Part shown: positions 36,429 to 38,361 of the stretch, one piece after another
Numbering within the stretch: the stretch's first letter is position 1
How the letters are laid out: the number at the start of each line of letters is the position of its first letter
Source of the DNA: Myxococcales bacterium
Lineage (GTDB): Bacteria > Myxococcota_A > Polyangia > Palsa-1104 > JAEUJZ01
NCBI GenBank assembly: GCA_016794365.1
Contig: JAEUKB010000041.1
Coordinates: forward strand, 124,001 to 188,000
DNA: 64,000 bases
Direction of reading: 5' to 3'
The notes under the pieces: generated by a model
Databases searched by the model: none
Told to the model about the DNA's origin: nothing
The model's input: only the letters and a program-made list of their open reading frames with translations
Made by a program: the position numbers and the translations under genes

Positions 36429-38264
36429 CTAGGAGATTTCCAAGGCCATCGCGACCGCACGTCCGCAGAAGCGCTGGTATTCCGACGAGACCTGGACTTC
36501 CGGTGGCAGCCCATCGCGAGGCACAGGACGGAACCCAAATTTTTCCGCAAAAAAGTCCGTCGCGTGCTCCGTAAGCAGACACACTCGCAGCAAGCCTCGC
36601 TGGCGAACCCGAACGAGCGCCATCTCAGCCAGCATCCAGCCAAGCCCTTCGCCTCGTCGCTCAGGATGAACAGCCAGCGATCGCAGCAGCGCCGTGTCTC
36701 CGTACAATTCGAGCGCAACACAGCCAATCACTTCCGTTTGCCCATCCTTGATCACCCACAGCTCAGCGACTGCATCGGGTACACCTGTCGTCGGAAGCTT
36801 GGACAAGTCCAAGAGCCGCTTGACGCTCGACAGATCGCTGTGCAGCGCGGGCATCACCGCATCCCCCAGCTTCTGGAGCAGCCGATCGTGCAGGTTCTCG
36901 AAGCTGCCCGACGACATGATCACAACGGTGTCACCGGCGGATACGCGCTGAGCCAGATGCTCGACGATCTGCGCGGTGCTGGCGATCGCTTTGGCAGGAA
37001 CGCCGCGACGACGAATGTCCGCCGCCAGCTTTTCCACGTCGAGTCGATTGCCCGCCGGAGCCTTTTCCGGCATGTGTACCGCGCCAATCAGGATTTCATC
37101 CGCAGCGACGAGCGCATCCGCAAACTCTTGCTGAAATACAGCCGTCCGACTGGTTGCCGAGCGAGGCTCGAAGACCGCGATCAGACGGCCCGTACCAAAG
37201 CGGCCGCGAAGACCACGCAGCGTTTCGCGAATCGCCGTCGGATGATGCGCAAAGTCATCGACGACGGACACGCCTTGAGCCACGCCCCGCAGCTCTTGAC
37301 GACGCTTGACACCGACGAAACGACGGATGCCGGGCGCAATCTCGCTCGCAGACAAGCCCAAGTTGGCCAGTGCAGCAATCACACCGACGGCATTTTCCAG
37401 GTTGTAGCCACCGGGCAGACCCAGCTCGAAGTGACCGTAGAGCTGACCTTTGTGATGAAGCTGAAACGCGGTCCGTCCGCCGGGCTTGATGCCAGTGACC
37501 TCCGCGCGCCACTCAACATCGTCGGGACAGCTACCACTGATGCCATAACGCTCGACGCGGCAGCACGCGGCTTTGGCACAGTCGAGCGCATGCGCTGAGC
37601 TGGCACACACAACCAGCGCGCCGTCTTCGGGAATCAGCGCGGCCAGCTCTCGGAACGCCTGCTTGATGTGCTCGAGGTCGGTGAAGATATCGACGTGATC
37701 CAGCTCGACGCTGGTCAGGATCGCGACGCGCGGCTGGTAGTGAAGGAACTTGCTCTTTTTGTCGAAGAACGCGCAGTCGTACTCGTCGCCTTCCAAGACA
37801 ACGTGCGGACCCGATCCGACGGCGGCGTTGTGGCCCATATTGAGCGGCACGCCACCGATCATGTACGACGGCTGCCGTCCCGCATTGAGCAGCGTCCACG
37901 CAGCCAGCGACGAGGTTGTCGTCTTTCCATGGGTTCCGCACACCACAAGCGACTGCTTCCCTGGAAGGAGCAGCTCCTCGATGATCGCTGGGAACGAGGT
38001 CAGACGAATTCCGCGCGCTTGAGCCGCTAGAACCTCGACGTGATCGCGACGACAGATGTTGCCAACCACCACCACGTCGGGCAGCCAGTCGAGGTTTTTG
38101 TCCGCAAAGCCTTCCGTGACTGCGATGCCCGCGCTGGCGAGCTGCGTTGACATCGGCGGATAGACATGCTCGTCGGAGCCGCGAACTTCGTGACCGATTG
38201 CTCGAAGCAGCTCGGCCACTGCACCCATTCCGGTACCGCAGATACCAATAAAATGAATCTTCAC
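36429..38264 (-). CDS. mpl: Mpl murein tripeptide ligase fused to a C-terminal GNAT acetyltransferase
   Basis: 611 residues from the GTG at 38264, with GAGGAG 6 nt upstream; the longer frame would run into leuB. Residues 1 to ~465 match Mpl, which joins recycled L-Ala-D-Glu-mDap to UDP-MurNAc: KIHFIGICGTGMGAVAELL, YPPMSTQLASAGI, ATP loop CGTHGKTTTSS, LEGDEYDCAFFDKKSKF, VELDHVDIF and DDFAHHPTAI. Residues ~471-611 (about 36429-36854) form a complete GNAT domain: IGCVALELYGDTALLRSLAV, acetyl-CoA loop ERRGEGLG, LTEHATDFFAEKFGF and VPRDGLPPEVQVSSEY, resembling ArsN2-type acetyltransferases. Standard Mpl ends near residue 455, so this is a fusion with no stop between the domains. The acetyl acceptor is unknown. 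Confidence 0.88.
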   Translation of the reverse strand: MKIHFIGICGTGMGAVAELLRAIGHEVRGSDEHVYPPMSTQLASAGIAVTEGFADKNLDWLPDVVVVGNICRRDHVEVLAAQARGIRLTSFPAIIEELLLPGKQSLVVCGTHGKTTTSSLAAWTLLNAGRQPSYMIGGVPLNMGHNAAVGSGPHVVLEGDEYDCAFFDKKSKFLHYQPRVAILTSVELDHVDIFTDLEHIKQAFRELAALIPEDGALVVCASSAHALDCAKAACCRVERYGISGSCPDDVEWRAEVTGIKPGGRTAFQLHHKGQLYGHFELGLPGGYNLENAVGVIAALANLGLSASEIAPGIRRFVGVKRRQELRGVAQGVSVVDDFAHHPTAIRETLRGLRGRFGTGRLIAVFEPRSATSRTAVFQQEFADALVAADEILIGAVHMPEKAPAGNRLDVEKLAADIRRRGVPAKAIASTAQIVEHLAQRVSAGDTVVIMSSGSFENLHDRLLQKLGDAVMPALHSDLSSVKRLLDLSKLPTTGVPDAVAELWVIKDGQTEVIGCVALELYGDTALLRSLAVHPERRGEGLGWMLAEMALVRVRQRGLLRVCLLTEHATDFFAEKFGFRPVPRDGLPPEVQVSSEYQRFCGRAVAMALEIS

Positions 38265-38361
38265 GTTTCTCCTCGTCAGCGTCGCGGAAGGAGCGCCGCA
38301 CAGCGGCCTAGTTCGCGTGTTGGGAAAGTATAACGGAAGCGAATGACCGCTCGGTGAGTGG

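What the first reader, a model, noticed from the sequence alone, without database searches (positions are those of the whole stretch)
36429..38264. Mpl murein-recycling ligase fused to a GNAT acetyltransferase
The reading frame has no stop between a complete Mpl (residues 1-~465) and a complete GNAT domain (~471-611) that looks like the ArsN2 type (LRSLAVHPERRGEGLG; TDFFAEKFGF). Mpl handles free murein tripeptide. A linked acetyltransferase could acetylate a cell-wall fragment or amino-acid-like toxin, joining wall recycling with detoxification or modification. I do not know of a described fusion of this kind.
Basis: partly seen in the sequence, partly recalled or inferred. Interest (0 to 1): 0.68.

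Follow-up and report, generated by a model that had tools for sequence, protein, structure and literature searches.

The report
Wall-recycling ligase fused to an acetyltransferase
A myxobacterial enzyme that puts used cell-wall peptides back into wall building (Mpl) is permanently joined to an acetyltransferase; the joint formed once, is kept in many families of this group, both halves look functional, and what the acetyltransferase acts on is unknown, which makes it a good target for a bench test.

Summary
Confirmed. The minus-strand ORF 38264-36429 (611 aa, GTG start with an AGGAG-type ribosome site) is an intact Mpl (residues 1-466) joined without a linker to an intact GNAT acetyltransferase (467-611). 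It is not an artefact. The same fusion is in 32 of 58 genomes of the class, in 10 families (91 of 290 judged by frame length). It arose once: fused Mpl and fused GNAT domains are each monophyletic. The joint has no indel in 29 relatives, and both halves are under strong purifying selection. Unfused relatives in the class keep plain Mpl and have no free-standing orthologue of the GNAT. Catalytic signatures of both halves are conserved. The nearest family is ArsN2 (38% identity, but below its curated cut-off); the nearest folds are glutamate N-acetyltransferases (NAGS). A general arginine-pathway (NAGS) role is unlikely: the NAGS general base is replaced by Leu/Ile/Phe/Val, and nearly all fused genomes have another route. 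Most likely the Mpl half is a normal recycling ligase and the GNAT half N-acetylates an amine of a murein-derived peptide or amino acid; the substrate is inferred, not shown. No description of the fusion was found in the papers searched. New variant of a known kind.

The parts
36429..38264 (-). mpl-GNAT fusion gene, 611 aa, GTG start
38269..38274 (-). GAGGAG ribosome-binding-site-like sequence, 4 bases before the GTG
36867..38264 (-). Mpl ligase part, residues 1-466 (Pfam Mur_ligase, Mur_ligase_M, Mur_ligase_C; TIGR01081 over 2-466)
37914..37937 (-). ATP-binding P-loop GTHGKTTT, residues 110-117, invariant in the fused set
37749..37781 (-). Mpl-specific motif YDCAFFDKKSK, residues 162-172 (Tyr and the AFFDK loop are named as Mpl-specific in PMC3060825)
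37233..37259 (-). Mpl C-domain motif DDFAHHPTA, residues 336-344
36807..36908 (-). Joint (residues 453-486): the Mpl C-terminal helix runs into the first GNAT strand; no insertion or deletion in 29 homologues
36432..36866 (-). GNAT N-acetyltransferase part, residues 467-611 (Pfam core 501-579), ArsN2/NAGS-like
36639..36656 (-). Acetyl-CoA motif R-G-E-G-L-G, residues 537-542; R537, G540 and G542 invariant in 29 of 29

Best explanation
This is a genuine bifunctional cytoplasmic enzyme of peptidoglycan recycling. SHOWN by sequence: an intact Mpl ligase and an intact acetyl-CoA-binding GNAT domain lie in one ungapped polypeptide, fused once in an ancestor of many families of this class and inherited vertically under purifying selection. 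FOLLOWS from the families: the Mpl half ligates imported murein tripeptide (L-Ala-gamma-D-Glu-meso-DAP) to UDP-MurNAc with ATP. INFERRED: the GNAT half transfers acetyl from acetyl-CoA to an amino group of a substrate drawn from the same pool, most economically the murein peptide itself (the L-Ala N-terminus or the free D-centre amine of DAP) or an amino acid released from it. Acetylating L-Ala would block ligation and act as a valve away from re-use. Acetylating DAP would mark recycled stems and stop that amine from being cross-linked. The rigid, linker-free joint at the Mpl peptide-binding domain suits a shared substrate pool, but does not prove it.
For: Both domains are above Pfam cut-offs in the window protein and matched at E <= 0.001 in 28 to 29 of 29 homologues. 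Mpl-specific residues are conserved: Y162, AFFDK, R321, R322, AHH and EPR (with PMC3060825). The best solved relative is a full-length Mpl, 3hn7, E 2.6e-90. R537/G540/G542 of the CoA motif are invariant. GNAT fold model pLDDT 79, nearest 5yge, NAGS with acetyl-CoA and glutamate. Fused in 32 of 58 genomes, 10 families; 91 of 290 by frame length of at least 510 aa. Both domain trees put the fused set on one branch, 90/87 and 93/94. dN/dS about 0.06 in both halves. The rest of the recycling route is in the genome: an AmpG-family permease at 446 bits (cut-off 350) and an LdcA-family peptidase. murB and a ddl-like gene lie 3.4-5.3 kb away (assigned by reading).
Against: No direct evidence ties the GNAT substrate to murein; the link is the fusion itself. 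Putative pocket positions differ between clades (R62 of the domain is Phe in all six f8 rows), so one common substrate is not certain. Mpl residues that differ from well-studied Mpl are mostly shared with unfused members of the class, so the ligase half shows little sign of adapting to a modified peptide. dS is near saturation for the main pair used. The AF2 model of the whole protein is poor in the GNAT half, so the domain arrangement is unknown.
Confidence: 0.4

Rival explanations
1. The GNAT half is an ArsN2-type detoxifier: it N-acetylates glutamate-like or small peptide antimetabolites (arsinothricin, phosphinothricin and similar), and the fusion to Mpl serves co-expression or takes advantage of peptide import.
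For: ArsN2 is the nearest curated family for all 29 members, with about 38% identity to plasmid ArsN2 from ars operons. ArsN genes sit in ars operons; for the related ArsN1, arsinothricin and phosphinothricin resistance is shown (PMC6465285).
Against: Scores below the ArsN2 cut-off (109.6 against 125). The fused GNATs form their own clade apart from five ars-operon ArsN2 and four free-standing relatives from the phylum. No ars genes were seen near the gene. Retention throughout whole families fits housekeeping better than patchy resistance. ArsN2 itself has no tested substrate in the papers found.
Confidence: 0.2
2. The GNAT half is the N-acetylglutamate synthase of arginine biosynthesis, carried on Mpl as the Moritella enzyme is carried on ArgH.
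For: Closest solved structures and folds are NAGS. H-NAGS is a precedent for a short NAGS fused to another enzyme (PMC1382215). The window genome has a full acetylated arginine cluster but no ArgJ and no vertebrate-type NAGS.
Against: The NAGS general base (Glu353 in N. gonorrhoeae NAGS) aligns with Leu/Ile/Phe/Val in 29 of 29, and the carboxylate-binding Arg316 has no counterpart. Of 32 fused genomes, 26 have ArgJ or PF04768 NAGS; three more have gene X in the arginine cluster as a candidate; two lack argB; only G042 is left. The gene is not in the arginine cluster.
Confidence: 0.07
3. The GNAT half is a regulatory protein acetyltransferase, or an acetyl-CoA sensor, that tunes the ligase half or another wall enzyme.
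For: Rigid ungapped joint; the fold is also close to RimI and other protein N-terminal acetyltransferases; acetyl-CoA would be a sensible signal of nutrient state.
Against: Sequence profile neighbours are amino-acid acetyltransferases rather than protein acetyltransferases. No specific support.
Confidence: 0.15
4. Assembly artefact or chance read-through of two adjacent genes.
For: The genome is a draft assembly (104 contigs).
Against: Same architecture in 32 genome assemblies across 10 families with a constant joint.
Confidence: 0.005

Closest known systems
[quoted passage not shown] structure 3HN7, PMC3060825)
   Same: All three Mur ligase domains, P-loop, metal and tripeptide-domain residues, AFFDK loop and the Tyr unique to Mpl
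   Different: Extra C-terminal GNAT domain; class-level changes at several ligand-near positions (Phe12 to Gly, Gly74 to Asp, Gly91 to Phe, Asn406 to Ala); 1 bit under the model cut-off
ArsN2 N-acetyltransferase (NF040501, PMC6465285)
   Same: Best family match for all 29 fused GNATs; LLRSLAV strand, T..A..F loop, terminal Met; both lack the NAGS general base
   Different: Below the curated cut-off for the window protein; separate clade; fused to Mpl; acidic residue after the conserved Thr (E/D100 in 23 of 29) where ArsN2 has Thr; no ars operon
Short N-acetylglutamate synthase (M. tuberculosis ArgA/Rv2747, 5yge) and H-NAGS (Moritella ArgH-ArgA fusion)
   Same: GNAT fold, closest solved structures; H-NAGS is the closest precedent in design: an amino-acid acetyltransferase on the C-terminus of a metabolic enzyme
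   Different: NAGS general base and carboxylate-binding Arg not conserved; the partner is a wall-recycling ligase, not an arginine enzyme

Membership tests
Mpl (TIGR01081) | Curated HMM score at or above 388.7 bits over the full length | tested here: inconclusive
   387.7 bits over 2-466, 1 bit below; the MurC model scores 307 against cut-off 335
Mpl (TIGR01081) | Mpl-specific residues: Tyr182, (S/T/C)AFFDK loop, Arg357/358, FAHH, EPRS of PaMpl | tested here: met
   All present in the window protein, near-invariant in 31 fused rows (residue list from PMC3060825)
Mpl (TIGR01081) | A separate MurC in the same genome | tested here: met
   A second Mur-ligase match, 34% identical, at G000:C82:184779-186359; the reported match runs on past a TAG
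Mpl (TIGR01081) | Ligates L-Ala-gamma-D-Glu-meso-DAP to UDP-MurNAc | not testable with these tools
   needs an enzyme assay
ArsN2 (NF040501) | Curated score at or above 125 bits | tested here: not met
   109.6 bits (whole protein), 111.7 (domain alone)
ArsN2 (NF040501) | Encoded in an ars operon | tested here: not met
   Window neighbours are ribosomal protein, secE/nusG, Iso_dh, NAD-kinase-like, murB and ddl-like genes
GNAT superfamily (PF00583/PF13508) | Acetyl-CoA motif R/Q-x-x-G-x-G/A and fold | tested here: met
   R537-G-E-G540-L-G542 invariant; model matches GNAT structures, best E 2e-10
NAGS (short or classical) | General base Glu353 and carboxylate-binding Arg316 of N. gonorrhoeae NAGS | tested here: not met
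   Leu/Ile/Phe/Val at the base position in 29 of 29; Arg316 falls in a loop missing here (residues from PMC4490483). Rests on a sequence alignment, not a superposition.
NAGS (short or classical) | Classical NAGS (TIGR01890 / PRK05279) curated score | tested here: not met
   38 and 41 bits against 202.85 and 344
NAGS (short or classical) | Acetylates L-glutamate, complements argA | not testable with these tools
   needs bench work

The most novel reading that the evidence does not exclude
A previously unknown N-acetylation step exists in peptidoglycan recycling in these myxobacteria: the fused enzyme acetylates the free murein tripeptide (or UDP-MurNAc-tripeptide) and thereby decides whether recycled stems are re-used, set aside or marked.
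Probability: 0.3. Interest if true: 0.75.

Novelty: new variant of a known kind. Interest (0 to 1): 0.5.

Why it matters
Wall recycling is well mapped in a few model bacteria; to my knowledge no acetyltransferase is assigned to its tripeptide branch. A fusion kept through the radiation of many families is a strong hint of a functional link, and it hands experimenters one protein with two assayable activities. If the GNAT half acts on murein peptides, it reveals a new control point in wall recycling; if it acts on glutamate-like toxins, it gives the ArsN2-like family a substrate in a chromosomal, housekeeping setting.

Tried and rejected
NAGS role: tested by ArgJ, PF04768 and argB distribution, by the arginine cluster and by active-site residues; rejected as a general role. 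Conserved operon partner: none across the class; an inositol-monophosphatase-family gene follows closely in loci from f2, f3, f5 and f14 only. Mpl substrate shift with the fusion: the departures from PaMpl are mostly shared with unfused relatives of the class. Viral-contig relatives of the GNAT: none. Laying the whole genome for scripts was not available. The AF2 full-length model was not used for domain arrangement (GNAT half about 32-73 pLDDT).

Full report
THE OBSERVATION. Window 38264-36429 on the minus strand is one open frame of 611 codons from a GTG, preceded four bases upstream by GAGGAG. Pfam assigns the three Mur ligase domains to residues 2-99, 108-298 and 321-453, and GNAT to 501-579, all over cut-off. 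NCBIfam gives TIGR01081 mpl over 2-466 at 387.7 bits (cut-off 388.7) and NF040501 ArsN2 over 478-607 at 109.6 bits (cut-off 125).

NOT AN ARTEFACT. A search of 58 genomes of the class with the whole protein finds the two parts in one frame in 32 genomes, counting two where the match is reported in two pieces within one frame; they belong to 10 families. In 290 class genomes, 91 carry a strong match to the GNAT profile inside a frame of at least 510 aa; only the first set was checked for the Mpl part. In a phylum sample of 284 genomes the strong matches outside this pattern were weaker and in frames too short for, or without, Mpl. Unfused members of the class (18 genomes in families f9, f10, f12, f13, f15, f16, f19 and f20) have a plain Mpl and no GNAT-profile match in the fetched flanks, and no free-standing orthologue comparable to the fused domain was found in them.

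ONE ORIGIN, INHERITED. In maximum-likelihood trees the 31 fused Mpl domains lie on one side of a branch (support 90/87), and the 32 fused GNAT domains likewise (93/94), apart from five ars-operon ArsN2 proteins and four free-standing relatives from the phylum. Support is good, not overwhelming, and the roots are midpoint roots. Across 29 sequences the 34 columns around the joint have no indel, so the domains look held in a fixed register rather than tethered by a flexible linker. Between the window and a same-genus relative, dN/dS is about 0.06 in each half; dS is high there (1.3 and 2.1), so the ratio is approximate, but a second pair over the N-terminal 175 codons gives 0.08 at dS 0.39.

LIGASE HALF. 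The closest solved protein is the full-length Mpl 3hn7 (E 2.6e-90). Residues that the structure paper (PMC3060825) lists as Mpl-specific or catalytic are present: P-loop GTHGKTTT, E161, Y162, AFFDK, R321/R322, FAHH and EPRS. Departures at PaMpl Phe12, Gly74, Gly91 and Asn406 are shared with most unfused members of the class, so they do not follow from the fusion. The genome also has an AmpG-family permease (446 bits, cut-off 350) and an LdcA-family peptidase, so import and trimming of murein peptides are plausible. The gene lies 3.4-5.3 kb from murB and a ddl-like gene (assigned by reading).

ACETYLTRANSFERASE HALF. R537, G540 and G542 of the acetyl-CoA motif are invariant in 29 of 29. ArsN2 is the best NCBIfam match, found in all 29 members, followed by several amino-acid N-acetyltransferase models. 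The best solved relatives are M. tuberculosis NAGS (E 4e-14) and N. gonorrhoeae NAGS. A model of the domain (pLDDT 79, from only two sequences) has 5yge, NAGS with acetyl-CoA and glutamate, as best Foldseek hit. So it is an amino-acid-type acetyltransferase by descent. The literature groups ArsN2 with glutamate N-acetyltransferases and shows that ArsN1 confers resistance to arsinothricin and phosphinothricin (PMC6465285).

IS IT THE NAGS? The window genome tempts one to say yes: its arginine cluster (L148) has argG, X, argC, argD, N-acetylornithine carbamoyltransferase, argB, a deacylase, argH and argR, with no ArgJ and no PF04768 NAGS in the genome. Three tests speak against it. First, the NAGS general base Glu353 aligns with Leu, Ile, Phe or Val in every member, and Arg316 falls in a missing loop. 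Second, 26 of the 32 fused genomes have ArgJ or PF04768 NAGS. Third, gene X, next to argC in the cluster, is present in G000-G003, G025, G038 and G041, which have argB but neither ArgJ nor PF04768 NAGS, in fragments in G005 (a partial genome), and in G022, which also has ArgJ; weak matches occur in two more genomes. X shows a weak, below-cut-off similarity to DUF1611, so it is a candidate for the missing acylation step, by inference only. One fused genome, G042, is left without a visible alternative.

BEST EXPLANATION. Shown: structure of the gene, conservation, single origin, intact signatures in both halves. Known from the families: Mpl re-attaches the free murein tripeptide to UDP-MurNAc. 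Inferred: the acetyltransferase works on an amine in the same pool. I commit to the murein peptide or an amino acid from it as the likeliest substrate (0.4 for the whole statement), ahead of toxin inactivation (0.2), regulation of the ligase (0.15) and NAGS (0.07).

NOVELTY. Neither domain is new; the combination was not found in the papers searched (open-access library only). It is a new variant of a known kind: Mpl with a fixed acetyltransferase. The closest precedent in design is the Moritella ArgH-ArgA fusion (PMC1382215).

LIMITS. Large, nearly complete genomes in f8 suggest that cultured species carry the fusion, but this was not checked. No expression data. Domain arrangement in space is unknown.

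Noticed in passing
L148:12313-13539 (G000:C56), also in G003 (L149:12393-13622): Unassigned gene X inside the arginine cluster (argG-X-argC), weakly DUF1611-like, no NCBIfam or PDB match. It occurs mainly in genomes with argB but without ArgJ or PF04768 NAGS: a candidate for a new glutamate N-acylating enzyme.
   Followed up: partly
L155:10036-10878, L156:9988-10812, L153:3237-4040, L154:10332-11510, L158:9995-10909: An inositol-monophosphatase-family gene lies directly downstream of the fusion gene in loci from families f2, f3, f5 and f14, not in the window.
   Followed up: partly
window:39487-39855, strand -: 122-aa ORF between the Iso_dh gene and a NAD-kinase-like gene, no Pfam or NCBIfam match.
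   Followed up: no
L185 (G037:C55) and other f14 genomes: Several f14 genomes hold a second ArsN2-like GNAT besides the fused one.
   Followed up: no
L033-L038, position R62 of the GNAT domain: All six f8 rows have Phe where other fused GNATs have Arg in the LLRSLAV strand, hinting at a different acceptor pocket in that family.
   Followed up: no
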